Source: Amphibalanus amphitrite (taxonomy: Eukaryota > Arthropoda > Thecostraca > Balanomorpha > Balanidae). Taken from it: 64,000 nucleotides of DNA. Made by a program: the position numbers and the translations under genes. Positions 25,871 to 42,756 of this stretch are shown here, piece by piece. The notes under the pieces were generated by a model. That model did no database searches and was not told where the DNA came from. It saw only the letters and a program-made list of their open reading frames with translations. How positions within the stretch are numbered: position 1 is the stretch's first letter; each line of letters opens with the position of its first letter. The stretch is taken from contig NW_024881708.1 of assembly GCF_019059575.1 (NCBI RefSeq), positions 434,001-498,000 of the forward strand, in the 5' to 3' direction.

Positions 25871-26152
25871 TATGAATCATTTGATGCGTGCGTTAGTATT
25901 AGTTAATCAACTTTTCTTATTTGTACGTTTGAGTTGTTTGATTGACATTACGAACGAAATGTCATCACAGAGGTGATCTTGGGTGAAAAGGGAGGAAGGT
26001 GTATTTGTTTTATGTTTTTGTGCATATTTTAGGTATGTTAGGTGTGGCATGAGTGGTATTCGCAGATACTCTATTTTGTAAGTGCAGGCAGACACAAGTA
26101 CCTACATATATCTTTTTTCATATGTAATGATACATTGCGTATCAATGATACA

Positions 26153-27522
26153 CCAGTATAACTCCTTTTGGGGCGACTAACGGAGCGAGCGAGAGGGTGG
26201 GCCTTGCACGTGCGAAATTGCGAGGGGGTACCTCCAACTGACTTGTGAACGGCACCCTACTAACCGGTCTCTAGCGACGTGCCAAATTTGGGCACAATCG
26301 GCCCAGCCGTTCTCGAGATCTGGAAGCGGCACCCTGCACGTGCGCACGTGCAAAATGGGTCCCAACTGACTTGTGCACGGCACCCTACTAACCGGTCCCT
26401 AACTGTGTACCAAATTTGAGCGCAATCAGTCGAGCCGTTCTCGAGATCTGGAAACGACCCCTGCACGTGCGCACGCGCAGCAGCACCCCAACTCTGGCAC
26501 ATGGATATGCAGTGCCAAGTGGGTGCCTACCTACATGCCAACTTTCAGCGCAATCGGCCAAGTAGTTACCGAGATATTGCAACAATTACTAAACGGACAC
26601 CTCTTCTTTTTGCACGTGGCACGTGCATAAGGGGTCACCCACATGCATCAGGAATAGTCCAATACTTGGTAGAAGGAATGAAGCTACCCTACAAAAATTA
26701 CCGCGTGTAAATCGGTCAAGTGGTTGCTGAGATATAAGCCTCGCAAAAGCGTGACCACGGCCGGCCGGCCGCTCATACTCAGAAATTTCCGTTAATCTAA
26801 GGAAAGACTACGCTCGCTTCGCTCGCTCCGTAACCAGTATAACGCCTTTTGGGGCGACTAACGGAGCGAGCGAGAGGGTGGGCCTTGCACGTGCGAAATT
26901 TCGAGGGGGTACCTCCAACTGACTTGTGCACGGCACCTTACTAACCGGTCTCTAGTGATGTGCCAAATTTGGGCACAACCGGGCCAGCCGTTCTCGAGAT
27001 CTGGAAGCGGCACCCTGCACGTGCGCACGTGCAAAATGGGTCCCAACTGACTTGTGCACGGCACCCTACTAACCGATTCCTAACTGTGTACCAAATTTAA
27101 GCGCAATCGGTCGAGCCGTTCTCGAGATCTGGAAACGACCCCTGCATGTGCGCACGTGCAGCAGCACCCCAACTCTGGCACATGGATATGCAGTGCCTAG
27201 TGGGTGCCTACCTACATGCCAACTTTGAGCGCAATCGGCCAAATAGTTACCGAGATATTGCAACAATTACAAAACTGACACCTCTTCGTTTTGCACGTGG
27301 CACGTGCATAAGGGGTCACCCACATGCATCGGGAATAGTCCAATACTTGGTAAAAGGAATGAAGCTACCCTACAAAAATTACCGCATGTAAATCGGTCAA
27401 GTGGTTGCTGAGATATAAGCCTCGCAAAAGCGTCCGCACGGCCGGCCGGCCGGCCGGCCGCTCATACTCAGAAATTTCCGTTAATCTAAGGAAAGACTAC
27501 GCTCGCTTCGCTCGCTCCGTAA
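26153..27522. repeat. Tandem duplication of a roughly 681-bp palindrome-ended repeat
   Basis: Copy 1 spans 26153-26833 and copy 2 spans 26834-27522, nearly identical. Each begins near TAACGGAGCGAGCGAG and ends in CGCTCGCTTCGCTCGCTCCG, which are partly inverted relative to each other. Copies differ by scattered substitutions and by the length of a GGCC run (about 26758-26772 versus 27440-27462). Multiple CACGTG-containing motifs such as TGCACGTGCG recur inside. Confidence 0.8.
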
Positions 27523-28139: not shown

Positions 28140-28145
28140 GATGCC

Positions 28146-28478
28146 TGTAGCCATGTACTGCTGCCGGTCACCGCTAGGCCCATGTACTTCTGCCGGTCGC
28201 CGCTAGATGCTGTGAACCGCGAGTTACAGTTTTGTTAATAGGTGTCGCTTTTACCAGTCTCTAAATTGCTAAAGCCTTCGATTAAGTTGTGCGCCCCCCT
28301 TTTAACGTTCCGTTCGCTTAAACTGCTGTATTGTTTGGACAACTGTATTGGCTATGTGTATATTAAAAACCATATGTATTCGTTTATTACATTCGATGTT
28401 CTCGCCAACATGTGTGCAATACTAGACAACTAAGTTCGTATGTAAAACTATATATGTCTCGATTTTGTGGCGAAATAC
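28146..28478 (+). repeat. 5' LTR, left part
   Basis: 333 bp starting TGTAGCCATG, identical by eye to 36873-37205. It is interrupted at GGCGAAATAC by non-LTR element A. A 63-codon frame inside appears in both LTRs and is not considered a gene. Confidence 0.9.
28469..28478 (+). repeat. Target-site duplication of non-LTR element A, left copy
   Basis: GGCGAAATAC, repeated at 34077-34086 on the other side of element A. Confidence 0.88.
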
Positions 28479-28644
28479 TCATCACAGGCTAAGGTGATCG
28501 TTAACTTGCTTCGGCAGTTGGCATTTCACGGGTTTGTTTTGAGAGCTCTCCTACGCGCATCCCCAACCCCTCACTACCAACCTTTTACCAGTTGTTCCAG
28601 CTCACTCTCCCTCACTGCCCACAACCGCATCCAGTTGCCCCACG

Positions 28645-30213
28645 ATGGGGAAGCGGCGCCGTCAGCGCCCGCTATCCGATTCTTTTTCCGAATCCGACTC
28701 TGACTCTCCTCTAAATCCGACCCCTCCCCCTGCCATGGACACCGACTCCCGCCCGACCGTCAACCCCCCCTCCTCTACCCACCCTTCGACTGATCTACCC
28801 GGTACCGACCCTCGCTCGTCCACTGACCACGCCCTGACCGCTGACCTGACCTCTGACCCCGCCCGGCACTCTGACCCTCGCTCGTCTACCGACCTCGCCC
28901 GGAGCCATGACCCTCGCCCGTCCACCGACCACTCCCGGAGCTCTGACCCGCGCACGAACTTGGCCAACGCACCTGCCTGTGCTTCTGTCGATCGCTCTCC
29001 ACTCGAACCGTACTTGGCTCTCGACGGCTCTTATCTGGTAGTGAAGGCTAGCGATAGTGACTTCTCTTTCCGGAAGATCAACGTTTTTTGGCCTCAGAAG
29101 CAGATCGCTGCTATCTGTGGACAGCATGGCCCCGACATCGAAGCTCCAGCTAACGGCACTCTCGTGATCAAAACTCACAATCGAAGGGACACAAAAGCAC
29201 TCCTGAAGACAACCATGTTCTGTGGCAAACAGGTGACAGTCTCTCTCCACCAGAGTCGCAACTCTTGCAAAGGCACGATTTTTGCCCCCGAGATCCGCCA
29301 CATGACCGAGGATGAGATCCAGTCAGAGCTGAGAGGAGAGGGAGTAACACACGTCAGACGGCTGACTACCTTCCGCGATGGTCAGCGACAGGACACTAGT
29401 TTGCTCGTTCTGACTTTCGACTCCACCACCCTGCCCGAGAAGATCGCCATCGGCTGGCTCAAGAAAGACGTCCGAGTTTTCATTCCCAATCCGCTCCGCT
29501 GTTTCAAATGTCAGCGATTCGGTCACGGCAGTGCCACCTGCCGTCAGGCTGCCCGCTGTCAGAAGTGTGGTGAAGCCCCTCATGCGGACTCTGCTTGCAC
29601 CAAACCAGTTACTTGTCTCAGCTGTGGTAGCTCGGAGCATTCAGTCTCTTCCTCTCAGTGCCCCACGTGGAAGAAGGAAAAGCGTATCTGCGAGATCAAA
29701 GCTCAGTCCGGCTGCTCCTACCCCGACGCTCGTCGCCGTGTGGAAGCCGAAACAGCCACTCCGGCTCCCGGTCGGTCTTATGCCAAGGCCGCCAGTACAG
29801 AGACCACCTCATGCAGTACTCAGACTGACCCGATCTCAGCACTCCCCCCTCTTCAGTGTCTGAAACCCCTGACAGCATCTACGACCACATCTACGAACAC
29901 CAACGACGCAACGGAGACCATCTTTGGTGACCCGATGCCTTCCTCTCCTCCCGAGTCACAGCCTGAGGTCTCACAGGAGATCGCTCGGCAGCCAAAGCCC
30001 TCTGCCGGAGCTGGCCGCTCCACCGCAAGCTGGACGAGGGTCCAGCGGTCGAAAGATCCCCGACCCCAGCCTCCATCAAAGGATAGTCAGTCGTCAAGCG
30101 CACGCACGTCACGTCCTCCTATCAGAGTGTCAATGGGCCACAACCGTGCGTCAAGTTGGGCTTCGCCCCGTCGTGGTGTAACAAACAGGTACTCTCTCTT
30201 AGAACAACAATAA
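28645..30213 (+). CDS. Non-LTR element A ORF1, zinc-knuckle nucleic-acid-binding protein
   Basis: 522 aa from an ATG at 28645. The first ~110 residues are low-complexity Ser/Asp/Pro/Arg-rich repeats (DPRSSTD-like). A structured middle region follows. Near residues 286-340 come three CCHC-type knuckles, beginning CFKCQRFGHGSATC and then CQKCGEAPHADSAC. The C-terminal third is Ser/Thr/Pro-rich. In this element type ORF1 binds the element RNA to form the ribonucleoprotein. Its stop TAA (30211-30213) overlaps the ORF2 start region by the tetranucleotide ATAA. It is homologous over its middle to ORF1 of element B at 37362-38828. No frameshift or internal stop is seen. Confidence 0.88.
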   Translation: MGKRRRQRPLSDSFSESDSDSPLNPTPPPAMDTDSRPTVNPPSSTHPSTDLPGTDPRSSTDHALTADLTSDPARHSDPRSSTDLARSHDPRPSTDHSRSSDPRTNLANAPACASVDRSPLEPYLALDGSYLVVKASDSDFSFRKINVFWPQKQIAAICGQHGPDIEAPANGTLVIKTHNRRDTKALLKTTMFCGKQVTVSLHQSRNSCKGTIFAPEIRHMTEDEIQSELRGEGVTHVRRLTTFRDGQRQDTSLLVLTFDSTTLPEKIAIGWLKKDVRVFIPNPLRCFKCQRFGHGSATCRQAARCQKCGEAPHADSACTKPVTCLSCGSSEHSVSSSQCPTWKKEKRICEIKAQSGCSYPDARRRVEAETATPAPGRSYAKAASTETTSCSTQTDPISALPPLQCLKPLTASTTTSTNTNDATETIFGDPMPSSPPESQPEVSQEIARQPKPSAGAGRSTASWTRVQRSKDPRPQPPSKDSQSSSARTSRPPIRVSMGHNRASSWASPRRGVTNRYSLLEQQ

Positions 30214-33200
30214 ACAACCTACTCCAGTGGAACTGCCGAGGCCTAGTTTCGAACTGGGCCGAAAGCAAAATGATCTTTCTTCTACTAGCACCCATAGTAA
30301 TAGCGCTACAAGAAACATGGTTACTTCCAACCGATCCATACAACTTTTCGCTGTTCAACTATTCGTTATATCGATACGACGAGACTGAAGGAGAGCGGCG
30401 CCACGGCGGCTCCGCTTTATACATCAACAATGACTACGTACATGATTTGATAACGCTCAACACTCCATTGCAAGCGGTGGCTTGCACTATTCGTTTGCAC
30501 GGACGGAATTTAGACATTTGTTCCATCTACATTCCTCCGAACACAGACAACCACACACTGGAAAGAAATCTCAACCGTCTAATAGCACAGTTCCGACATC
30601 CATTTCTCTTACTCGGAGACTTTAATGCCCACAGTCCGATGTGGGGCCGTAACATTAGAGTCTCTGATGAACGCGGTGAAATAGTTGAACGCTTTCTCGA
30701 CATGAATCACCTGGTTCTCCTTAACACAGGAGAAAACACACATTTTTCTTTAGCACACAATAGTGAATCTGCAATCGATCTTTCGATATGTTCACCACAA
30801 ATCGCTACTTTTTTTGATTGGATAGTAGACTCAGATGTTTACCACAGTGATCACTATCTAATCAAGCTTCGTACAACTTTCCGATCTGATGATGATGCTA
30901 CTTCCGCTTCTATTCCTAGATGGAACCTGAAGAAAGCAGACTGGGCGAAGTTCGAGGAATTTTGCAATATAGATCATGAACGATTCCACTCTCCAGAACA
31001 AGGCATCGCCTTTTTAACAAATACCATTTTGTCTGCAGCAAATGAATCTATTCCATCCGCAGCACCGTCGCTAGGTCGAAAACGGGTTCCATGGTGGTCT
31101 CCGGAAGTGGCCAGGGCGATAGCAAAACGGAAAAGAGCCTTCAGAAGATATTTACGACTCCGTGATGAGGATAGTTTATTACAACGAAATAGGGAGAGAG
31201 CAAAATGCAGAAAAATTATTCGTGAGGCAAAAAAGACATCATGGCGATCTTTCTTGTCTCAATTCAACTCTCAAACTCCTTTAAGCAGGATATGGTCTTT
31301 AGTTCGCTCGCTTTCGGGGAAGCGAAGTTTCTCAAGTCTCCCGATACTTCACATTAATGACACAATTATATCAGAGCCACAAGCGATTATTAACACGATA
31401 GCAGAAACCTTTGCTCACTGTAGCTCCTCTCGCAATTACAGGGCTGGATTTATTGAGAGAAGTCGGACAACGTTTCTTTTACCAGCACAAGCATTTGCAT
31501 CAAACAACACGGAAGAGTACAATGATCAGTTTACCATTGTTGAATTACGTAATGCGATCTTCTCCACAGGAAACACTTCCGTAGGTCCTGATAGATTGCA
31601 TTATGATTTTTTCAGACATTTACCGGAGAGTGCTTTAGCATTTATGCTGCAAGTCTTGAACGATTTGTGGACTCAACACATTTTTCCAGAGGCATGGCGA
31701 GCAGCGAACATAATTCCATTACCAAAACCAGGGAAAGACAGAAGAAACCCTGAACATTACAGACCGATAGCATTGACTAGCTGTTTTGGTAAAATTTTCG
31801 AGAGAATGATTAGCAAAAGAATCACGTGGTATCTAGAGGAAAAGAAGTTATTATCATCATTCCAAAGTGGTTTCAGAAAAAATCATTCTACCTACGATCA
31901 CATCATTAGACTAGAAACCGACGTAAGAAAAGCTTTCAAACACAAACAACATACAACATCAGTTTTCTTAGACATATCACGGGCATACGACATGGTTCAT
32001 AGACCGGCACTGATTTTCAAGTTACATCGGATGGGCTTTCGTGGACATCTCGCTTACTATTTGGTTGGTTTTCTTTCTGGCATGCGCAGCTTCCAAGTAC
32101 GATCTCGATCATTATATTCCAATACCTACTTTCTTGAAAATGGCTTACCGCAAGGTAGCTGTTTATCACCTCTTCTCTTCAACATCATCATAAATGATTT
32201 ATTTGACACGGTTCCCCAAGGCATTTCCTGTTCGTTATTCGCTGATGACTGTGCAATTTGGTGTTCTGATTTAGATTCACAGCATTCCATACCGCGACTA
32301 CAAAAGGCTCTCGATAATATAGACAGCTGGTCCAGAAACAACGGTTTTATTTTTTCTCCAACGAAGTCGGCTGTGATGACATTCACAAAAAACGTACGAA
32401 TGCGTCAAGCATCAGATCTTCGATTATCAGGCAACATCATCCCTCGCGTAGACTCGTTTAAATTTCTCGGGGTAGTACTCGATCCCCGACTAAGCATGGT
32501 GAAGCATATACAATATATAAAAGTAAAATGTATGAAGCGCATGAACCTATTCCGATGCATCGCAGGCACGGATTTTGGAGCGGATCGGAAAACTCTACTT
32601 CGCCTTTACAAAACAATTGTATTACCAATCATCGAATATGGCGCCATAATTTATGCTGGGGCCAGTGACAATACATTAAAAAAGTTAGACACACTTCAAA
32701 ACTCTTTTATTCGCATAGCTACCGGTGCCATGAAGACTTCGCCAATTCCATCTTTGCAGGTTGAAGCTTTCGTTCCGCCTTTACACCTTCGTCGCATAGA
32801 ACAGACTCTACGATATGTAACTAAAGTTTCGTTCCATCCGAACCACAACACATATAAATCTCTTCATATATTACCATCAATCCATCACAACTATATAGGT
32901 CCGGCGGAAAAAAGGTCTGGATTAACTATAGCTTCCAGGGTTAAAAAATTCTCCACAGACCTTGACTTCATTCAGCCCAAAATTCATCCGTTACCGAAGT
33001 TGAGCGTGGCACCATGGCGTGGATGCCCCTTGGATGTATTGTTTCTGTTACATCGTTCGAAAACACAGACAACAGAAGAAGAAATACATCAAAGGTTCAT
33101 TCAAATAAGAGAACAATATCATGACCATCAATTCATATACACAGACGGCTCAAAAGACGGTAGACGCACGTCCATCGCCGTTTTTTCCCGCTGCGACAAT

Positions 33201-33974
33201 CAAATAGTTCTACAATTTCGTCTCCAAAACGAAACCAGCATTTATGTAGCTGAGCTCCATGCATTGTATGAAGCCCTGAAGCTTGTAAAAGACAAACATT
33301 GGAATAAAGTAGTCATTTGTACAGATTCTCGGTCAGCAATACAGTCACTACAACAGGAATCTCCATCTTCACCATTAGGTATCCACATCTACAACCTGCA
33401 TAACTCACTAACAATCCAGGGTATTATCATCAAATATATATGGATACCCGGACACAGCGGAATATATGGAAACATTCAGGCGGACAAATACGCGAAAGCT
33501 GCTCTTACCAAACCGCACATTACTAACATTCCATCTGAATATCAATCCGTAAAGTCTTTGTTAAGACAAAAAACACTAGCCCTCTGGAAAAAACAATGGA
33601 CAGATACGACACGGGCAACACAGCTTCGACGCATAAAAATAGACATTACAGAATGGCACACATCAAACAGACACAACAGACACGAAGAAAAAGTCCTAGC
33701 CCGCATGCGTCTAGGACACACACATTATACGCACAATTTTATATATACAAAGGACGATCGACCAATATGTGACATCTGTCGAACGCCAATCACAGTCCAC
33801 CACATCATTATCGACTGCCTAAAATATAATAGAGAAAGGCAACAACTCATTAATAGCTGCAACAATGACGGTCTTCCATTCACATTACCCACGATTCTCG
33901 GAGATTCAGATCACACCTTGCAAGATCTTCTTTTCTCGTTTCTTCGCAATATCAACCTGTTCGTGGAACTGTAG
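30210..33974 (+). CDS. Non-LTR element A ORF2, endonuclease-reverse transcriptase-RNase H
   Basis: The frame is open from 30156, but without an ATG near its beginning. The position matching the ORF2 ATG of element B is ATA at 30210. The protein shows an APE-type endonuclease (LQWNCRGL, LQETW, LGDFNAHSP, then SDHYL). The reverse transcriptase shows IALTSCFGKIFERM, GLPQGSCLSP and FADD, the catalytic Asp pair near residue 695 counting from 30156. RNase H follows (YTDGSKDG, the ELHA segment, TDSRSA, WIPGHSG, about 995-1100). A terminal CDIC...HHIIIDC zinc-binding motif ends it. It copies element RNA at a nicked target. All catalytic motifs look intact, but translation start is doubtful (next ATG near 30269, inside the nuclease domain). 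Confidence 0.88.
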   Translation: MNNLLQWNCRGLVSNWAESKMIFLLLAPIVIALQETWLLPTDPYNFSLFNYSLYRYDETEGERRHGGSALYINNDYVHDLITLNTPLQAVACTIRLHGRNLDICSIYIPPNTDNHTLERNLNRLIAQFRHPFLLLGDFNAHSPMWGRNIRVSDERGEIVERFLDMNHLVLLNTGENTHFSLAHNSESAIDLSICSPQIATFFDWIVDSDVYHSDHYLIKLRTTFRSDDDATSASIPRWNLKKADWAKFEEFCNIDHERFHSPEQGIAFLTNTILSAANESIPSAAPSLGRKRVPWWSPEVARAIAKRKRAFRRYLRLRDEDSLLQRNRERAKCRKIIREAKKTSWRSFLSQFNSQTPLSRIWSLVRSLSGKRSFSSLPILHINDTIISEPQAIINTIAETFAHCSSSRNYRAGFIERSRTTFLLPAQAFASNNTEEYNDQFTIVELRNAIFSTGNTSVGPDRLHYDFFRHLPESALAFMLQVLNDLWTQHIFPEAWRAANIIPLPKPGKDRRNPEHYRPIALTSCFGKIFERMISKRITWYLEEKKLLSSFQSGFRKNHSTYDHIIRLETDVRKAFKHKQHTTSVFLDISRAYDMVHRPALIFKLHRMGFRGHLAYYLVGFLSGMRSFQVRSRSLYSNTYFLENGLPQGSCLSPLLFNIIINDLFDTVPQGISCSLFADDCAIWCSDLDSQHSIPRLQKALDNIDSWSRNNGFIFSPTKSAVMTFTKNVRMRQASDLRLSGNIIPRVDSFKFLGVVLDPRLSMVKHIQYIKVKCMKRMNLFRCIAGTDFGADRKTLLRLYKTIVLPIIEYGAIIYAGASDNTLKKLDTLQNSFIRIATGAMKTSPIPSLQVEAFVPPLHLRRIEQTLRYVTKVSFHPNHNTYKSLHILPSIHHNYIGPAEKRSGLTIASRVKKFSTDLDFIQPKIHPLPKLSVAPWRGCPLDVLFLLHRSKTQTTEEEIHQRFIQIREQYHDHQFIYTDGSKDGRRTSIAVFSRCDNQIVLQFRLQNETSIYVAELHALYEALKLVKDKHWNKVVICTDSRSAIQSLQQESPSSPLGIHIYNLHNSLTIQGIIIKYIWIPGHSGIYGNIQADKYAKAALTKPHITNIPSEYQSVKSLLRQKTLALWKKQWTDTTRATQLRRIKIDITEWHTSNRHNRHEEKVLARMRLGHTHYTHNFIYTKDDRPICDICRTPITVHHIIIDCLKYNRERQQLINSCNNDGLPFTLPTILGDSDHTLQDLLFSFLRNINLFVEL

Positions 33975-34017
33975 TTAGGCATCATCAATATCTAGTGTAG
34001 AACAACATCTTTAATAA

Positions 34018-34050
34018 GGGCATGAAATGGTCTGTTCGGCCGAAATGCCC
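34018..34050 (+). other. 3' UTR hairpin of non-LTR element A
   Basis: Outer stem GGGCAT (34018-34023) with ATGCCC (34045-34050). The internal GAAAT is on the 5' side and GAA on the 3' side. The inner stem GGTC/GGCC closes loop TGTTC. The same architecture with different stem bases is present in element B. Confidence 0.75.
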
Positions 34051-34076
34051 CAAATCAAAACAAAGTCAAAGTCAAA

Positions 34077-34086
34077 GGCGAAATAC
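34077..34086 (+). repeat. Target-site duplication of non-LTR element A, right copy
   Basis: GGCGAAATAC, as at 28469-28478. Confidence 0.88.
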
Positions 34087-34132
34087 AAGAGATATCTGTA
34101 TGTTACAGTGTTTCTACTGGCTACACCAGCCA
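34087..34132 (+). repeat. 5' LTR, right part
   Basis: 46 bp from AAGAGATATCTG to CCAGCCA, identical to 42705-42750. It completes the 5' LTR after element A. Confidence 0.88.
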
Positions 34133-34135
34133 GAT

Positions 34136-34148
34136 TGGTGACCCCGCG
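34136..34148 (+). promoter_or_regulatory. Candidate primer-binding site of the Ty3/gypsy element
   Basis: TGGTGACCCCGCG lies 3 bp after the 5' LTR. A TGG start at this position is usual for a tRNA-complementary primer site. The cognate tRNA was not determined. Confidence 0.6.
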
Positions 34149-34458
34149 TTCTACGCACTAAGGGATCGCTATCCCCTCGTGTTCCCTGGCACACCGACAC
34201 TGGCCTGCACCCTGAGCTATCTCCTCCAGCTCTCTTTGTGTAGGAAGGAAGTGGCGGATGGTGTGTCTCCACGAGGATCCTAATTTTGTGCTGTGTGGAT
34301 CTGGATAACGCCGACTACTACTGCTGCACTACGGTCCAGCTACCTCATCGGCTTCATCGACTACCGTCCGGCTACCTCTGCAGCTGCACCGCAGCACCTG
34401 GCGATCGCCGTGTCGCCGTCGCCGCCACCGATCTTCCCGACCATTGCTCTCGGCAGCT

Positions 34459-36855
34459 ATGGCCCCAGAAGACATCGCCAAGACAGCGATCACAACGCCC
34501 TTCGGCGCCTTCGAGTTCCTTCGTATGCCGTACGGTCTCCGGAACTGCGCTCAGACCTTCCAACGGTTCATGGACCACATCCTCCGTGGCCTGGACTTCG
34601 CCTTCGTCTATGTAGATGACATCCTCATCGCCAGCAGCAGCATCTCGGAACATCTCACACACCTCCGAGAGGTCTTCAGCCGTCTTTCCCGCAACGGTGT
34701 GCTCCTCAACCCATCGAAGTGCGCCTTCGGCATGGAAAGCATCTCCTACCTCGGCCACCAGATCTCCAGCGGAGGCATCACTCCTCTCGACGATCGAGTC
34801 AGTGCGATCAAGAACTTCGACCGTCCAGAGTCAAAGAAGAGCCTCAAGAAGTTCCTCGGGATGATCAACTTCTACCACCGCTTCATCCCACACGCTGCTG
34901 CTCTTCTGGCACCTCTCCACGGCCTGACTGCCTCAGACGACCGAGCTGCTTCAGTCACGTGGACCTCAGAGGCAGACGCCGCCTTCTCTGCAGCCAAAGC
35001 CGCCCTCGCTGACGTCACCCAGCTCGCTCATCCCGTCAAAGATGCAGCTCTGAGCCTCAGCACTGACGCCAGCAGCACGGCAGCCGGCGCCGTGCTCCAC
35101 CAGCGAGTTGGTGGTTCTCTTCAGCCTCTCGCCTTCTTCTCGCGCAAGTGCACGCCCACCCAACGCCGCTACAGCACCTTTGGACGAGAATTGCTCGCCA
35201 TGTACCTCGCCGTGCGACATTTCCTGCCCTATCTGGAAGGACGCGACTTCGAGATCCTCACGGACCACAAGCCGCTCGTCTTTGCTCTCAAGGCCAACAG
35301 CAACGCCAACCATTCTCTCCGTGAACAACGTCACATGGACCTGATTCTGCAGCACACCAGCAAGATCGGACATGTTCCTGGACACCTCAACCCGGTAGCT
35401 GACGCCATCTCACGGATCAGCTCAGTGTCTGCGCCAGCTTCTGCCGCAGCTACACCTTCACCCGGCCTTCTGAGCTTGGCCGACATCGCCTTACACCAAG
35501 CCAACGATCCTGACCTGCCGAAGCTGCAACAATCCTCATCTCTGATCATCCGTGACTTCCCAGTCCCTGATCATCCGCATCTACGTCTCTGGTGCGACAC
35601 CTCAACGGCCACACCTAGACCTGTAGTCCCAGCCAGACTCCGCCCTTCCATCATCAAGAGCTTCCACGACTTGTCTCATCCTGGCATCAACGCTACGCGT
35701 CATCTCATCTCATCGAGGTTCATCTGGCCCCACATCAACGCGGACATCCGTGCCTTCGTCCGGAGCTGCCAGCACTGCCAGCGTGCCAAGATCCAGCGCC
35801 ACACGAAGCCACCCATGGGCAGCTTCCAGCCACCTGACTCTCGCTTCCTGCACATCCACATCGACCTTGTCGGACCACTTCCTCCGTCCCATGGCAACTC
35901 CTATCTCCTGACTGTCGTCGACCGCTTCACCCGATGGCCCGAGGCAATTCCTCTGCCCACCATGGACGCCGTCACGGTGGCTCGGCATCTCGTCAGCGGC
36001 TGGATCGCCCGCTTCGGAGTACCCGAACTCATCACCACCGACAGAGGATCCCAGTTCGAGTCCCGCCTCTGGACAGAAATCTCCAAGCTTCTCGGCACCT
36101 CTCGGATCCGGACCTGCGCCTACCACCCAGAAGCAAACGGGATGGTAGAGCGCTTCCACCGCCAACTGAAGTCAGCTCTGCGGACCGATGACGACGCCGT
36201 CTCCTGGTCGGACCGACTTCCTCTGGTGCTACTCGGAGTGCGCACGGCCCTCAAGGAGGATCTCGGATGCACCGCTGCAGACCTAGTCTATGGTTGCAGT
36301 CTCCGACTTCCTGGTGACTTCCTCTCCCCCATGTCGTCGGACACTTCTTCTGATCCGGCTTCCCTAGCCTCTCGTCTCCGTGCCACCATGTCGGAGCTCC
36401 GTCCAACTCCTCCTCGTCCTGGCTCCCGCCAAATCTTCATCTCTCAAGACATGCAAACCTGCTCCCACGTCTTCATCCGACGCGATTCGCATCGCTCTCC
36501 TTTCCAATACGTCTATGACGGTCCTTATCGTGTCCTATCCCGCGACCAGCACACCGTCACCATCGACCGTCTCGGGCGACGCGACACCGTCACCCTGGCT
36601 CGGTGTAAACCGGCCTTCACGGACCACGCGCCTGCCGCAACGCCGCCTCCTGCGCCGGACGTCCTGGTGATCGACACGCCTCCTACGGCGCCAGACAGCT
36701 CGGTGGACCGCCCGCCTACTGCACCCAGCCGCTCGGGAGCCCCCGGCGGCTCTAGCCCGTCTCGCCGCGTGCCGCCGGGCCCGCCGCCTGCTTCGCCGCC
36801 CCCTCTCCGTCGTTCGTCGCGTCTTCGCCGCCAAACATCTTTTTATGGTGTTTAA
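34459..36855 (+). CDS. Truncated Ty3/gypsy pol: RT C-half, RNase H, integrase
   Basis: About 798 aa from an ATG at 34459; the frame is open upstream to about 34309 and the true start is unknown. It enters in mid reverse transcriptase (APEDIAKTAITTPFG), so gag, protease and the first catalytic Asp of RT are missing. YVDD follows at about 34609. RNase H is seen as STDASSTAAGAV and TDHKPLVFAL. An HHCC integrase zinc finger follows (HDLSHPGINATRHL then CQHCQ). The catalytic DDE triad is in HIDLVGPLP, TTDRGSQFE and GMVERFH. The tail is Pro/Ser/Arg-rich. The frame is intact to the stop just before the polypurine tract. The copy cannot be autonomous, since RT is incomplete and gag is absent. Confidence 0.88.
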   Translation: MAPEDIAKTAITTPFGAFEFLRMPYGLRNCAQTFQRFMDHILRGLDFAFVYVDDILIASSSISEHLTHLREVFSRLSRNGVLLNPSKCAFGMESISYLGHQISSGGITPLDDRVSAIKNFDRPESKKSLKKFLGMINFYHRFIPHAAALLAPLHGLTASDDRAASVTWTSEADAAFSAAKAALADVTQLAHPVKDAALSLSTDASSTAAGAVLHQRVGGSLQPLAFFSRKCTPTQRRYSTFGRELLAMYLAVRHFLPYLEGRDFEILTDHKPLVFALKANSNANHSLREQRHMDLILQHTSKIGHVPGHLNPVADAISRISSVSAPASAAATPSPGLLSLADIALHQANDPDLPKLQQSSSLIIRDFPVPDHPHLRLWCDTSTATPRPVVPARLRPSIIKSFHDLSHPGINATRHLISSRFIWPHINADIRAFVRSCQHCQRAKIQRHTKPPMGSFQPPDSRFLHIHIDLVGPLPPSHGNSYLLTVVDRFTRWPEAIPLPTMDAVTVARHLVSGWIARFGVPELITTDRGSQFESRLWTEISKLLGTSRIRTCAYHPEANGMVERFHRQLKSALRTDDDAVSWSDRLPLVLLGVRTALKEDLGCTAADLVYGCSLRLPGDFLSPMSSDTSSDPASLASRLRATMSELRPTPPRPGSRQIFISQDMQTCSHVFIRRDSHRSPFQYVYDGPYRVLSRDQHTVTIDRLGRRDTVTLARCKPAFTDHAPAATPPPAPDVLVIDTPPTAPDSSVDRPPTAPSRSGAPGGSSPSRRVPPGPPPASPPPLRRSSRLRRQTSFYGV

Positions 36856-36858
36856 CTA

Positions 36859-36872
36859 GGGCGGGGGAGTGA
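36859..36872 (+). promoter_or_regulatory. Polypurine tract of the Ty3/gypsy element
   Basis: GGGCGGGGGAGTGA immediately precedes the 3' LTR. This is the expected position and composition for the plus-strand primer. Confidence 0.75.
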
Positions 36873-37205
36873 TGTAGCCATGTACTGCTGCCGGTCACCG
36901 CTAGGCCCATGTACTTCTGCCGGTCGCCGCTAGATGCTGTGAACCGCGAGTTACAGTTTTGTTAATAGGTGTCGCTTTTACCAGTCTCTAAATTGCTAAA
37001 GCCTTCGATTAAGTTGTGCGCCCCCCTTTTAACGTTCCGTTCGCTTAAACTGCTGTATTGTTTGGACAACTGTATTGGCTATGTGTATATTAAAAACCAT
37101 ATGTATTCGTTTATTACATTCGATGTTCTCGCCAACATGTGTGCAATACTAGACAACTAAGTTCGTATGTAAAACTATATATGTCTCGATTTTGTGGCGA
37201 AATAC
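36873..37205 (+). repeat. 3' LTR, left part
   Basis: 333 bp, identical by eye to 28146-28478, interrupted at the same base after GGCGAAATAC by non-LTR element B. Confidence 0.9.
37196..37205 (+). repeat. Target-site duplication of non-LTR element B, left copy
   Basis: GGCGAAATAC, repeated at 42695-42704. Confidence 0.88.
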
Positions 37206-37361
37206 AAATGGACGATTTTCCACGCGCACGCTGAGATTGGCATTTGATTCCGCTCTTTTGATACGCTCTTTCTGGTTTTGAGCGTTTGGTGGTGATAGTT
37301 TCGTTTCTCTTGGTTCCATTAATTAGGTTTCTTCTCGTTTTCGTTCCCTTCGCTTTTCCCC

Positions 37362-38828
37362 ATGTCGGGGAAAAGACGCCGCCCTGATCCTCCGGACTCC
37401 GACTCTGACTCCTCCTTGGCCGACTCTCCTGATCACGTGATGGACTCCCAACTCCCGGCTGCTGACCCTGCCCCGCCTCTGACCGCTCACCCTGGCTCTG
37501 ACCTTCGCTCGTCCTTGACCACCGCCCCCGGCACTGACCCTCGCTCGACCCTGGCCTCCGCTCCCGGTACCGACCCGCGCCCGAACCTGACCACCGCTGG
37601 CCCGTCTATGGACAAGCCTGAGCCGTATCTCGAGTCGTCTGGATCTTTTTTGGTGATCAAGCCTGTTGATGAAAATGTTTCTTTCCGAAAGGTGAATGTG
37701 TTCTGGCCCACTAAGTATCTAGGGATGATCTGTGGCACCGGTCTCCTGGATATCGAAACTCCAGCGAACGGTACACTTATCGTAAAGACGGAAACTCGCG
37801 CTCAGACCAAGGCTTTGCTCAAATGCACCCGCTTCTGCGAAAAAGATGTAACTGTCTCTCTCCACCACGCACGCAACACCACGAAGGGTACGATCTTTGC
37901 TCCGGAGATGCGTTACATGTCCGAAGAGGAAATCCTCAGCGGACTTCGTTCTGAGGGGGTCGGTCATGTCCGCCGCCTCACTACCTTCCGAGACGGTCAG
38001 AGGCGTGACACCAGTCTGCTGGTGATCACCTTCAACACGACAAAGCTTCCAGACACTCTGCTCGCCGGCCACATTCGCTACGAGGTTCGCGTCTTTGTTC
38101 CCAACCCTCTCCGCTGCTTCAACTGCCAACGTTTCGGACATGGCTCAAAATTCTGCAAGCAGACCGCACGGTGCCACCGGTGTGGTGCTGCTCCGCATGA
38201 TGGCTCTCCTTGCTCCGCTCCGGTTAAATGCCTCAGTTGTGATGCCACCGACCACACTACAAACTCCAACCAGTGCCCAGTGTGGAAAAAGGAAAAAGAA
38301 ATCTGCACTGTGAAAGCAACCACGGGTGTCTCATACCCTCAAGCACGCCGCGCAGTCGAAGAAAAAATCTCCAAACAGCCAGCCAAATCGTACGCTCAGG
38401 CCACGCAGACCCAGACCGTCTCCAGCGGTACACAGACCGATGCCATCCCAGAGCTCCCTCCTCTGAAGTGCCTCTCGCCTGTGACTCCTGAGTCTACGGC
38501 TCCCAAACCGACCGCCTCCACCAGCACGACCCAGACATCTGAGAACACTGATGCAGATGAACAGATGCCGTCTTCTCTCGAATCCCTGCCGGCTGTCTCT
38601 CCAGAGATCGCTCCGAAGCCGAAGCCTGTCGGTGCAAGCCGCTTCACTGGCTGGATGAGGGTCCAGAATTCGAGTGGCTCCCGCCCCAAACCCTCAGCTC
38701 CCCTCACAGGTGATGGACAATCCAAGGATCGCCAGTCACGTCCACCGACTCGGGTGGCGATGGGGCGTAACCGCGCGCTGAGCTGGGCCTCGCCCAGCCG
38801 TGGTAACACATCTCGTCACCAATCATGA
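37362..38828 (+). CDS. Non-LTR element B ORF1, zinc-knuckle nucleic-acid-binding protein
   Basis: 488 aa from ATG at 37362. The N-terminal ~85 residues are rich in Asp, Pro and Ser. The conserved central region then parallels element A ORF1 (for example SFRKVNVFWP versus SFRKINVFWP). Three CCHC-type knuckles begin near residue 250 with CFNCQRFGHGSKFC and CHRCGAAPHDGSPC. The C-terminal region is Thr/Ser/Pro-rich. It is expected to coat element RNA. The TGA stop (38826-38828) overlaps the ORF2 ATG in the tetranucleotide ATGA, a layout compatible with termination-reinitiation. No internal break is seen. Confidence 0.9.
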   Translation: MSGKRRRPDPPDSDSDSSLADSPDHVMDSQLPAADPAPPLTAHPGSDLRSSLTTAPGTDPRSTLASAPGTDPRPNLTTAGPSMDKPEPYLESSGSFLVIKPVDENVSFRKVNVFWPTKYLGMICGTGLLDIETPANGTLIVKTETRAQTKALLKCTRFCEKDVTVSLHHARNTTKGTIFAPEMRYMSEEEILSGLRSEGVGHVRRLTTFRDGQRRDTSLLVITFNTTKLPDTLLAGHIRYEVRVFVPNPLRCFNCQRFGHGSKFCKQTARCHRCGAAPHDGSPCSAPVKCLSCDATDHTTNSNQCPVWKKEKEICTVKATTGVSYPQARRAVEEKISKQPAKSYAQATQTQTVSSGTQTDAIPELPPLKCLSPVTPESTAPKPTASTSTTQTSENTDADEQMPSSLESLPAVSPEIAPKPKPVGASRFTGWMRVQNSSGSRPKPSAPLTGDGQSKDRQSRPPTRVAMGRNRALSWASPSRGNTSRHQS

Positions 38829-41800
38829 ATAGTTACACCATGCTCCAATGGAACTGCCGAGGCCTACTTTCCAAGTGGGCCGAATTAAAAAACTTTTTCT
38901 CCGTACTTACTCCTATACTTATTGCGCTACAGGAAACTTGGTTTTTACCGACCGATCAGTACAATTTCAATTTATCAAACTACACATTATACAGACATGA
39001 TGAGCTGTACGGACAGCGCCGCCATGGTGGTGTCGCATTATACGTAAACAACGATTATACACATTGTGAGCTTGATATACAGACAGATTTACAGGCCGTT
39101 GCGTGTACCATGTATGTCAACGGCAGGAACATCGATGTTTGCAGCATTTATATTCCTCCCGATTTTGATAATACAAACCTTCTTAGACAGCTTAACAATC
39201 TCACGGACCAATTTCAAAACCCATTTCTTCTTCTCGGCGATTTCAATGCCCACAGTCCGGCTTGGTTGGACACACAATCCTTGAAACCCAGAGGAAGAGT
39301 TCTTGAAGATTTTCTTGATATGAATAGATTAGTAACACTCAACTGCAATCAACCGACGCACTTTAATTTATCACATAATACAGAGTCAGCCATCGACTTA
39401 TCTATTTCTTCTTCTTGCATTGCCCCTTGGTTCCACTGGACTGTTGATAGTGATATACACGATAGCGATCATTACCCGATTTTTCTTCGTTTTGGTTTTC
39501 CAGTCCCGGGTATCTGCTCTTTCATCCCCCGCTGGAATCTTGGCAAAGCTGATTGGGTTAAATTCACAGAGTTGTGTGAATTTGAACACCACGAGCGCTT
39601 TGCAAATCCTGAAGACGGTATTTCATACATCACTGAAACATTAATATCAGCCGCAAAAGAGTGCATTCCTGAAACCAAGCCATGCAAAAAAGGAAATGCT
39701 GTACCGTGGTGGACACCCGCTGTTCGATTGGCTATAGCAAAAAGGAAAAGAGCTTTCCGTACTTACCTTAGACTTCGCACAGAACAAGCCTTAATTAACA
39801 GAAATAGGGAGCGCGCAAACGCTCAGCGAACTATCCGGGCAGCCAAGCGCGACTCCTGGACCCGATTTTTGTCTTCATTTACTTCTTCGACGCCTTTATG
39901 CAAGATTTGGGATTTAGTTCGTCGTTTATCCGGAAAACGCACAGCTGCAACTTTCCCGGTGCTTAGGCTTCCGGGAATAGCCAACACCATTAGTGAACCA
40001 AATGATGTCGTGAACTGTTTAGCTCAACAAGTTGCTTTCACGAGCTCAAATGAACGCTACCACCCACAGTTTATAGGTAGGGCTCGTCAACGATTTTTGC
40101 CTGACCCAGATACTTTTATCTCAGATAACAACGAATACTACAATGTTCCCTTCACAGCACAGGAATTAAATGAGGCCATCGGTTCCGCCGGAAATACTTC
40201 CGTGGGGCCTGACAAACTTCATTATTCCTTCTTCCGCCATCTTTCGGAGAACTCGAAACTTTTCATTCTTCAGACGTTCAATGATCTTTTCCGCAATCAC
40301 GTCTTCCCAGAGAACTGGAAAGAAAGCATTGTTGTAACTTTATTAAAACCTGGCAAAGCTAGGCATAATGCGAATAGTTATCGTCCAATAGCCATGACAA
40401 GCTGCATAGGCAAGCTTTTGGAAAGGATGGTCTCCAAACGATTATCGTTTCACCTCGAACAGCAAGAATTGCTTTCGAAATTCCAATGCGGATTTCGAAA
40501 ACATCATTCTCCAATCGACCAATTGATCCGTTTGGAAAGTGATATACGAAAAGGATATAAAAAGAAAGAACATACTTCAGCAATTTTCCTAGACATCAAA
40601 AACGCTTTCGATATGGTGTACAGGCCGGCTTTGGTTTATAAATTAGGCCAGCTTGGCATAAAAGGACACTTAGCTTTTTATTTGTACAATTTTCTCTCGG
40701 GGACCAGGCGTTTTCGCGTCAGGCTCCGTTCTGTTTTTTCAAACACATATGAAACACACAATGGACTTCCACAAGGTAGTTGCTTATCCCCAATTCTTTT
40801 CAACATTATGATTGACGACTTATTTGAAGACATTCCTCCTGATATATCATTTTCTCTCTTCGCAGACGACAGCGCCATTTGGTGTACCACACCTGAATAT
40901 GACATCGGCATTCATCGTTTACAATTAGCACTTAATAAAATAGAAAGATGGTCGGAGTTGTATGGTTTGGAATTTTCTCCAGAAAAATCTGCATTCATGG
41001 TTTTCTCCAAACACAATACAATACGGCCATCGTCTCTCCCAAAGTTGAAAGGGACGCCTATTCCACTCATGAAAACCTTCAAGTTTCTAGGAGTCGTCTT
41101 GGACCCTAGATTGTCCATGGCACATCATGTCAAACACATTCAAACAAAATGCAAGAAAAGGTTAAATCTGTTCCGATGCCTCACCAGTACCCCAGCAGGG
41201 GCAGATCGCTCGGTACTACTAAGATTATATAAAAGCATTGTTTTACCTGTTATTGAATATGGATCAGTCATGTACGCAGGGGGCTGTAAATCCAGTTTGA
41301 TTAAGTTAGAAGCCGTCCAAAACAATTTTTTGAGGTTAGCTCTAGGAGCCATGAAAACATCACCGATATCATCTCTTCAAGTAGAGGCTAACATTATTCC
41401 TCTGCACATTAGGCGAATGGATTTATCTCTACGATACTACTCAAAAATTAAACAATATCCGTCACACGCAGCTCACACAGCTATATCCGTTCTTCCTCGG
41501 CTGCATTTCAGTTACCTCGGTCGATGCGAGAGACGGACTGGGCTTACATTGGCCTCACGAACAAGAAAATATCAAACTGATTTAGGATATGAGTTACCCA
41601 GTGTCCCACCACTACCGCATTGTGCAGTATCGCCTTGGACGGCTCATCCACTTTCGGTGTCCTTTTTGTTTACGGCTCGTAAGGATTCTCTCTCTCACGG
41701 CGAAGTGAAGCAAGCTTTTCTTAGTTTTCAGGCGTCCAATGCTCTTTTCCATTTTGTTTACACAGATGCCTCAAAACAAAACAACACGGTCGGCATCGGT

Positions 41801-42589
41801 ATATTCGCTCCAGAATATCCACAAACACTTGTAAGGGTACAAAATGATATTTCTGTCTACTCTGCTGAGCTACACGCAATTTTCCTCGCTCTCAAACTTA
41901 TTCGCCATCACCACATTCAAATGGCATGCATATGTTCCGATTCCAAATCAGCAGTTTTAGGCCTTTTGCAACCTGATACCACGCAACATATTTGTTTAAA
42001 CATACTTACTTTGCACCAACAACTTATCGACAACGGAGTTAAAATACAGTTTTTGTGGATACCTGGGCACAGCGGCATATATGGCAACGAAAAAGCAGAC
42101 CAATACGCCAAGCAAGCCCTAGCGATTCAAGACATCACCGCGATCCCTTATACCTCCAGCAATATTCGAGCCTCCATAAAACAACATTGTTACCACTTCT
42201 GGCAAAACAGTTGGGACACCGATGGTATTGGCACACACCTTCATCGTATTAAACCGTATATACAACATTGGTCATCATCAAGTCGAAAATCCAGGAGAGA
42301 AGAAAAGGTTTTGGCAAGACTACGACTCGGACATACTTACTTAACTCATTCTCACATATTCAATCGACAGCCATGGCCTACTTGTCCTTCTTGTAGATCT
42401 CCTCTTACAATCGAACACATTATAGTACATTGTCGTAAATATCATACACATCGTAAACCAATAAATGACTACTGCCGGGCACATGATATACAAATGAATC
42501 TACCCATCATTCTTGGTGATGATCATCCTGCATTACTACAACTTCTCTTCTCTTTTCTCCTTAAAACAGATCTTCTTCATCGTCTGTAG
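38825..42589 (+). CDS. Non-LTR element B ORF2, endonuclease-reverse transcriptase-RNase H
   Basis: 1254 aa from ATG at 38825, which overlaps the ORF1 stop. APE endonuclease motifs: MLQWNCRGLLSKW, LQETW, LLGDFNAHSP and a late SDHYP. Reverse transcriptase motifs: IAMTSCIGKLLERM, GLPQGSCLSP and FADD near residue 678. RNase H motifs: YTDASKQN near 978, AELHAI, SDSKSA and WIPGHSG near 1077. A C-terminal CPSC...HIIVHC motif follows. All catalytic residues that I can identify are present and there is no frameshift, so it is potentially active. It is homologous to ORF2 of element A throughout but diverged at the protein level. The best fit is the I group because APE and RNase H occur together. Confidence 0.92.
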   Translation: MNSYTMLQWNCRGLLSKWAELKNFFSVLTPILIALQETWFLPTDQYNFNLSNYTLYRHDELYGQRRHGGVALYVNNDYTHCELDIQTDLQAVACTMYVNGRNIDVCSIYIPPDFDNTNLLRQLNNLTDQFQNPFLLLGDFNAHSPAWLDTQSLKPRGRVLEDFLDMNRLVTLNCNQPTHFNLSHNTESAIDLSISSSCIAPWFHWTVDSDIHDSDHYPIFLRFGFPVPGICSFIPRWNLGKADWVKFTELCEFEHHERFANPEDGISYITETLISAAKECIPETKPCKKGNAVPWWTPAVRLAIAKRKRAFRTYLRLRTEQALINRNRERANAQRTIRAAKRDSWTRFLSSFTSSTPLCKIWDLVRRLSGKRTAATFPVLRLPGIANTISEPNDVVNCLAQQVAFTSSNERYHPQFIGRARQRFLPDPDTFISDNNEYYNVPFTAQELNEAIGSAGNTSVGPDKLHYSFFRHLSENSKLFILQTFNDLFRNHVFPENWKESIVVTLLKPGKARHNANSYRPIAMTSCIGKLLERMVSKRLSFHLEQQELLSKFQCGFRKHHSPIDQLIRLESDIRKGYKKKEHTSAIFLDIKNAFDMVYRPALVYKLGQLGIKGHLAFYLYNFLSGTRRFRVRLRSVFSNTYETHNGLPQGSCLSPILFNIMIDDLFEDIPPDISFSLFADDSAIWCTTPEYDIGIHRLQLALNKIERWSELYGLEFSPEKSAFMVFSKHNTIRPSSLPKLKGTPIPLMKTFKFLGVVLDPRLSMAHHVKHIQTKCKKRLNLFRCLTSTPAGADRSVLLRLYKSIVLPVIEYGSVMYAGGCKSSLIKLEAVQNNFLRLALGAMKTSPISSLQVEANIIPLHIRRMDLSLRYYSKIKQYPSHAAHTAISVLPRLHFSYLGRCERRTGLTLASRTRKYQTDLGYELPSVPPLPHCAVSPWTAHPLSVSFLFTARKDSLSHGEVKQAFLSFQASNALFHFVYTDASKQNNTVGIGIFAPEYPQTLVRVQNDISVYSAELHAIFLALKLIRHHHIQMACICSDSKSAVLGLLQPDTTQHICLNILTLHQQLIDNGVKIQFLWIPGHSGIYGNEKADQYAKQALAIQDITAIPYTSSNIRASIKQHCYHFWQNSWDTDGIGTHLHRIKPYIQHWSSSSRKSRREEKVLARLRLGHTYLTHSHIFNRQPWPTCPSCRSPLTIEHIIVHCRKYHTHRKPINDYCRAHDIQMNLPIILGDDHPALLQLLFSFLLKTDLLHRL

Positions 42590-42640
42590 GTTCACTAGTT
42601 TCTTCATTCAGTTTATTTAATTCGACTTCGTTAACACACC

Positions 42641-42670
42641 GGTGCGAAATGGTCTAAAGACCGAAGCACC
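42641..42670 (+). other. 3' UTR hairpin of non-LTR element B
   Basis: Outer stem GGTGC (42641-42645) with GCACC (42666-42670). GAAAT and GAA flank an inner stem GGTCT/AGACC. It has the same layout as element A at 34018-34050 with compensating differences in the outer stem. Confidence 0.75.
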
Positions 42671-42694
42671 TAACCAACAAAAGAAAGAAAGAAA

Positions 42695-42704
42695 GGCGAA
42701 ATAC
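42695..42704 (+). repeat. Target-site duplication of non-LTR element B, right copy
   Basis: GGCGAAATAC, as at 37196-37205. Confidence 0.88.
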
Positions 42705-42750
42705 AAGAGATATCTGTATGTTACAGTGTTTCTACTGGCTACACCAGCCA
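42705..42750 (+). repeat. 3' LTR, right part
   Basis: 46 bp identical to 34087-34132, followed by the target duplication GATGCC at 42751-42756. Confidence 0.88.
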
Positions 42751-42756
42751 GATGCC

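What the first reader, a model, noticed from the sequence alone, without database searches (positions are those of the whole stretch)
28469..42704. Two different non-LTR retrotransposons inserted at the identical base of both LTRs
Elements A and B have clearly diverged proteins, yet each interrupts its LTR after the same base and in the same orientation. Each is flanked by the same 10-bp duplication GGCGAAATAC (28469-28478/34077-34086 and 37196-37205/42695-42704). Gene conversion between LTRs cannot create two different elements at one site. Independent insertion by endonucleases with shared sequence specificity for this LTR site is the simplest reading. It would make these a site-specific lineage living in another retrotransposon's LTR.
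Basis: partly seen in the sequence, partly recalled or inferred. Interest (0 to 1): 0.9.

Follow-up and report, generated by a model that had tools for sequence, protein, structure and literature searches.

The report
Retrotransposons that land on promoter starts
In an unnamed eukaryotic genome a group of jumping elements tends to insert itself just in front of the transcription start of repeated genes and of another transposon, perhaps so that the victim's promoter then drives the newcomer.

Summary
Two intact non-LTR retrotransposons (A, B; ORF2 52% identical) split the two identical 381-bp LTRs of one gypsy element after the same base, same orientation, with the same 10-bp duplication; the gypsy copy has its own outer duplication (TGCC), so an assembly join is unlikely. 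Genome-wide at least 10 of 143 such sites are split, by five or six element types.

B and the lineage as a whole are not LTR specialists; A itself might be (its one close relative is in a related LTR). A-type copies use a few recurrent sites: the LTR, a U1 snRNA start, and three unnamed repeats X, Y, Z; B-group copies also lie at a U1 and a U3 start. Five unrelated targets have a strict TATA motif 18-20 bp upstream of the duplication, a sixth (Z) at 25. In U1 the duplication is -9..+2. So the lineage prefers the interval between TATA box and start, which puts its first base near +1 of a host promoter. Promoter capture is inferred, not shown. 10 of 34 un-nested A-type copies and most B-group copies outside the LTR lie at sites without TATA. 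Recognition of a GGCGAAA-like sequence is the main rival.

The parts
28142..28145 (.). outer target duplication of the gypsy element, left copy (TGCC)
28146..28478 (+). 5' LTR, part before element A
   Evidence: identical to 36873-37205
28449..28456 (+). TATA motif of the LTR (TATATATG), first T 20 bp before the duplication
28469..28478 (+). target duplication of A, left copy GGCGAAATAC
28479..34076 (+). non-LTR retrotransposon A, complete
28645..30213 (+). A ORF1; three CCHC-type knuckles read by eye from the protein
   Evidence: no Pfam match
30087..33974 (+). A ORF2 frame (stop to stop): APE-type endonuclease, RT, RNase H
34018..34050 (+). A 3' hairpin, GGGCAT..GGTC..GGCC..ATGCCC
   Evidence: inner stem folded there; outer stem read by eye
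34051..34076 (+). A 3' tail ending in AAAGTC-type repeats
34077..34086 (+). target duplication of A, right copy
34077..34134 (+). rest of 5' LTR
34135..36872 (+). gypsy internal region; ORF 34309-36855 (later part of RT, RNase H, integrase)
36873..37205 (+). 3' LTR, part before element B
37176..37183 (+). TATA motif of the 3' LTR
   Evidence: same sequence as 28449-28456
37196..37205 (+). target duplication of B, left copy (10 bp, or 12 with AA)
37206..42694 (+). non-LTR retrotransposon B, complete
37362..38828 (+). B ORF1
38825..42589 (+). B ORF2 from its first ATG (overlaps ORF1 stop as ATGA)
42641..42670 (+). B 3' hairpin, GGTGC..GGTC..GACC..GCACC
   Evidence: inner stem folded there; outer stem read by eye
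42671..42694 (+). B 3' tail ending in AAAG repeats
42695..42704 (+). target duplication of B, right copy
42695..42752 (+). rest of 3' LTR
42753..42756 (.). outer target duplication of the gypsy element, right copy (TGCC)

Best explanation
A and B belong to one lineage of endonuclease-RT-RNase H non-LTR retrotransposons that inserts, presumably by target-primed reverse transcription, preferentially between the TATA box and the start site of promoters, in the direction of transcription. The left edge of the duplication lies 18-20 bp after the first T of the TATA motif, near -10; the right edge 9-12 bp further, near -1 to +2. The gypsy LTR is one such promoter and each gypsy element offers two. 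Shown: the junctions, duplications and the recurrent use of several unrelated TATA-bearing targets, one of them (U1) with a known start. Inferred: that recognition runs through promoter architecture (TBP/initiation complex, or the melted bubble) rather than sequence alone; and that the captured promoter then makes full-length element RNA from about the element's first base.
Against: No TATA at the right place in 10 of 34 un-nested A-type copies, in 5 of 8 full-length B-type copies, and in none of the six 67%-group copies with both ends read is there one: four at unrelated sites, one at a Z variant lacking the TATA, one nested. The sister copies of LTR-inserted elements whose 5' flanks were read (C204, C475) are at TATA-less sites. 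One B copy lies in the 5' part of U5, not at its start. At U3 the 5' junction was not found, so no duplication is shown. LTR, U1 and U3 share GGCGAAA and Y has GGCGACA, so sequence recognition could explain much. The LTR start is predicted, not mapped. The TATA idea was formed on the data it is tested on, and some copies of a target may stem from one event.
Confidence: 0.6

Rival explanations
1. Plain sequence specificity: the endonuclease recognises a degenerate sequence such as (G/T)(G/C)CGAA, which happens to sit at the start of U1, U3, the gypsy LTR and some repeats; the TATA box is only a neighbour.
For: GGCGAAA is shared by LTR, U1, U3; GGCGACA in Y; TTCCGAA in Z; GGC in X. It would also cover nested sites and the TATA-less Z variant. 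R1- and Tx1-clade elements are target sequence-specific (PMC4640811, first part read).
Against: C723 (ATTTCTATTC) and several other sites lack the motif, yet C723 keeps the TATA spacing; spacing to TATA is kept across unrelated sequences; 5' LTRs are hit more often than sequence-identical 3' LTRs (8 of 10, small numbers).
Confidence: 0.27
2. LTR-specific lineage. (Odds raised from 0.05 on recheck, because A's one close relative is also in an LTR.)
For: At least 10 of 143 LTR sites split at one base; C877, 87% identical to A at the 3' end, sits at the same base of a divergent LTR.
Against: Only 6 of 41 A-type and 2 of 8 B-type full-length copies are in the LTR; sister copies 97-100% identical are elsewhere.
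Confidence: 0.08
3. Random insertion in a repeat-rich genome plus later duplication of occupied repeats makes the sites look recurrent.
For: Some pairs look like copies of one event (L104/L105; L127/L128).
Against: At the LTR the junctions differ in added bases, tail and element type; two different groups are at U1 starts.
Confidence: 0.03
4. Assembly artefact joining separate loci.
For: None found.
Against: Outer gypsy duplication TGCC on both sides, identical LTRs; the same split on 8 other contigs.
Confidence: 0.02

Closest known systems
R1-clade and Tx1-clade target-specific non-LTR retrotransposons
   Same: APE-type endonuclease, exact insertion base, multicopy targets, transposons among the known targets (PMC4640811, first part read); Tx1L in another transposon is recalled
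   Different: One lineage here uses several unrelated targets whose common trait is a TATA motif at a set distance; RNase H domain present; clade not established
TRE5-A of Dictyostelium (non-LTR, near tRNA genes)
   Same: Non-LTR element guided to promoters
   Different: [quoted passage not shown] here the base is exact at the LTR and U1
Ty3 of yeast (LTR element, pol III start sites; recalled)
   Same: Inserts at start sites of small RNA genes
   Different: Integrase-based LTR element; here a non-LTR element at TATA-bearing targets including an LTR
Dada DNA transposons and Utopia non-LTR elements (snRNA genes)
   Same: snRNA genes as multicopy targets
   Different: They use specific sites within U6, U1, tRNA (Dada) or U2 (Utopia) genes, one gene type per family (PMC3706591 passages, PMC4640811 first part); here the site is at or just before the start and several targets are used

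Membership tests
Non-LTR retrotransposon (LINE) with APE-type endonuclease | Exo_endo_phos endonuclease and RVT_1 reverse transcriptase in ORF2 | tested here: met
   PF14529/PF03372 and PF00078 in both A and B
Non-LTR retrotransposon (LINE) with APE-type endonuclease | target duplication and 3' repeat tail | tested here: met
   9-12 bp in 24 of 30 insertions, four of 14-16 bp, one of 5 bp, one not found
I group (I, Nimb and kin; features recalled) | RNase H after RT, CCHC knuckles in ORF1 | tested here: met
   RNase H PF00075; knuckles read by eye, no Pfam hit for ORF1
I group (I, Nimb and kin; features recalled) | position in an RT phylogeny | not testable with these tools
R1 or Tx1 clade | RT phylogeny with R1/TRAS/SART or Tx1 | not testable with these tools
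   only weak PDB matches to R1Bm and TRAS1 endonucleases, weaker than to the human L1 endonuclease
LTR-specific lineage | most copies in the gypsy LTR site | tested here: not met
   6 of 41 A-type, 2 of 8 B-type; open for A in the narrow sense (C877)
Promoter-start-targeting element | fixed distance from TATA and from known start sites | tested here: inconclusive
   met for 24 of 34 un-nested A-type copies and for U1; not met for most B-group copies outside the LTR
Promoter-start-targeting element | dependence on initiation complex | not testable with these tools
   needs an assay

The most novel reading that the evidence does not exclude
A non-LTR retrotransposon lineage whose target is a physical state, the initiation complex with its melted bubble near -10..+2, not a sequence: it nicks the two edges of the bubble, so its own first base replaces +1 and each insertion steals a working promoter (snRNA, snoRNA, LTR). 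Extra 5' bases on new copies (A's TCAT equals the last four bases of the U1 duplication) would be start-site bases of the donor promoter, a record of where the parent copy sat. A SINE-like repeat with a related 3' end rides along and stacks at the same sites.
Probability: 0.35. Interest if true: 0.93.

Novelty: new variant of a known kind. Interest (0 to 1): 0.82.

Why it matters
How non-LTR retrotransposons get transcribed from their very first base after landing at new places is an old question. Landing at a host start site would answer it for this lineage, would make a LINE endonuclease a reporter of promoter opening, and could give a tool for start-site-directed insertion. It also shows a second transposon's LTR being used as one promoter among others.

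Tried and rejected
Protein database search was switched off. Scans of viral and prokaryotic contigs found no relative; the 11 viral 16-mer matches share at most 18 bp with the LTR and are taken as chance. Rfam (gathering) and tRNA scans of the window are empty. Considered and rejected: LTR specialist for the lineage, assembly join, duplication of one event, gene conversion (cannot make A and B differ). My first probability for TATA spacing (6 of 25 at 18-20 bp) was wrong because Z lies at 25 bp; one search replaces it. 5' junctions could not be located for C962, C877, C281 and C22, nor with certainty for four more B-group copies (L139, L140, L145, L149); C754 was re-read at another place. Copy number and split/intact counts of target X were not obtained. 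X, Y and Z gave no Rfam match in the loci scanned. Paper searches for TATA- or start-site-targeting non-LTR elements and on target specificity, SINEs and TRE5-A listed nothing of this kind; only open-licence papers are searched, so this is no proof of novelty. No structure prediction was run.
Full report
WHAT IS THERE. The window carries one Ty3/gypsy-type element with two identical 381-bp LTRs and its own outer duplication TGCC. Both LTRs are interrupted after the same base. Element A (28479-34076) and element B (37206-42694) have open ORF1 and ORF2; ORF2 holds an APE-type endonuclease, RT and RNase H. They are 52% identical in ORF2 and 55% in ORF1 over the aligned parts. Each is flanked by GGCGAAATAC, which occurs nowhere else in the window.

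WHOLE GENOME. The window lies in an unnamed assembly of 807.6 Mb (contig C211), eukaryotic by its snRNA genes. A pattern for the right junction of a split LTR (up to 2 mismatches) finds 10 sites and none for the reversed control: C211 twice, C489, C743, C932, C70, C401, C870, C22, C1343. A pattern for the intact site (up to 2 mismatches) finds 133. So at least 10 of 143 sites are split; tails not ending in A-rich sequence would be missed. A divergent LTR is split at the same base by an 87% relative of A on C877. The occupants are A, its 76% and 71% relatives (C870, C932), other copies with A's 5' end (C489, C1343, and C70, whose two junctions lie 14.3 kb apart and are assumed to belong together), B and a 98% relative (C743), a 67% relative of B (C22) and another B-group type known only from 151 bases (C401). 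To test whether other places of the gypsy element are hit, 49 element 3' flanks and 36 upstream flanks were compared with it: 10 and 3 match, all at this base and in this orientation; two 19-bp matches of X flanks to the LTR are taken as chance. In a tree of 35 3' ends the six LTR insertions included (A, C870, C932, B, C743, C22) are scattered; five have relatives of 97% or more at other places, while A's nearest is C877, itself in an LTR.

WHICH LTR. Eight of the ten split LTRs are 5' LTRs: seven are followed by the start of the gypsy internal region (C211 A, C932, C870, C743, C489, C22, C401), C70 is judged only by its distance of 5.0 kb from the intact partner. C211 B is a 3' LTR; C1343 is a 3' or solo LTR. 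8 of 9 gives p = 0.02, 8 of 10 p = 0.055. This is suggestive of active promoters being hit, no more.

THE COMMON TRAIT. In 30 insertions with both flanks the duplication is 9-12 bp in 24; four longer ones (14-16) run into A-rich tails, one is 5 bp and one was not found. Upstream of it lies a strict TATA motif at 20 and 18 bp (LTR, U1), 18 (X; another at 27), 20 (Y), 20 (C723), 25 (Z). For 25 distinct un-nested targets a strict motif at 18-20 bp is seen in 5 (expected rate 0.0043 each from the window, p about 8e-8) and within 16-26 bp in 6 (p about 2e-6); the other 19 have none within 60 bp. By copies, 24 of 34 un-nested A-type junctions have TATA at -46..-28 of the element's 5' end, against 1.6 by resampling. 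U1 is the yardstick: its duplication is -9..+2, and an unsplit U1 gene has TATA at -29 and GGCGAAACTC at -10..-1, the same layout as the LTR (TATA 30 bp before the base after the duplication). U1, X and Z also share ACTCCTC, 20 bp before a TATA, as a PSE would be; the label PSE is mine, and in the unsplit U1 gene the box reads ACTCATC. Hence the preferred insertion point is between TATA and start, and the element's first base takes the place of about +1.

AGAINST. 10 of 34 un-nested A-type copies, 5 of 8 B-type copies and all six copies of the 67% group with both ends read lack the TATA (four at unrelated sites, one at a Z variant, one nested). The TATA rule is thus carried by A-type copies and the LTR; the B group shares the LTR, U1, U3, Y and Z sites but strays more. 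It is a preference, not a strict rule. GGCGAAA is shared by LTR, U1 and U3, so sequence recognition is a live rival. The LTR start site is predicted.

ANATOMY THAT FITS. A- and B-type 3' ends fold into hairpins with an inner GGTC/GRCC-type stem, and by eye an outer stem GGGCAT/ATGCCC (A-type) or GGTGC/GCACC (B-type); no covariation test was run. A SINE-like repeat seen in flanks ends in GGTCTTGTCGACCGAAAGGGCCTAACCCAACAAAAC, much like B's end, and stands in tandem with the LINEs at the same sites. New arrivals at the left duplication copy would take over the promoter from older ones; this order is inferred.

KNOWN RELATIVES. PMC4640811 (first part read: abstract, introduction, start of results) assigns most target-specific families to early-branched, Tx1 and R1 clades. 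PMC3706591 (passages read) contrasts these with TRE5-A and Tf1, which go near tRNA genes or promoters but not to exact positions. PMC3124438 (passages read) reports the I clade as most represented in a shrimp and speaks of target specificity only for R1-clade families. The lineage here combines an exact base with what looks like a promoter-defined target. Its clade is not established; the ORF layout points to the I group by recall.

VERDICT. On recheck the interest was lowered slightly (0.84 to 0.82) because the B-group copies outside the LTR mostly lack the TATA.

Noticed in passing
L095, L056, L050, L097 (3' flanks); 5' flanks L098, L107, L108, L118, L124, L125, L130: A SINE-like repeat of a few hundred bases, with a 3' end much like B's, stacks in tandem with the LINEs at the same target sites.
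   Followed up: partly
L046, L101, L102, L104, L105, L110, L126 (target X); L116, L117, L127, L128 (Z); L099, L106, L111, L113, L119 (Y): Three repeated promoter-like targets without an Rfam match; X and Z share ACTCCTC-20bp-TATA with U1 and may be unknown small-RNA genes.
   Followed up: partly
window 28479-28482 and L077: A's extra 5' bases TCAT equal the last four bases of the U1 duplication on C324; may record a parent copy at U1.
   Followed up: no
L049, L054; contigs C324, C443, C736, C163, C281: U1 genes lie in clusters (U5 and 5S beside them in L049 and L054), on contigs that also hold several of these elements.
   Followed up: no
window 38825-38828: B has an ATGA overlap of ORF1 stop and ORF2 start; A has no such overlap.
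   Followed up: no
window 26152-26833 / 26833-27522: 690-bp direct tandem pair, 95% identical, just upstream of the gypsy element.
   Followed up: no
window 7148-7984/9858-10685, 20458-22792/51206-53805, 62151-62606/62801-63255: Large inverted repeat pairs, possibly other transposons.
   Followed up: no
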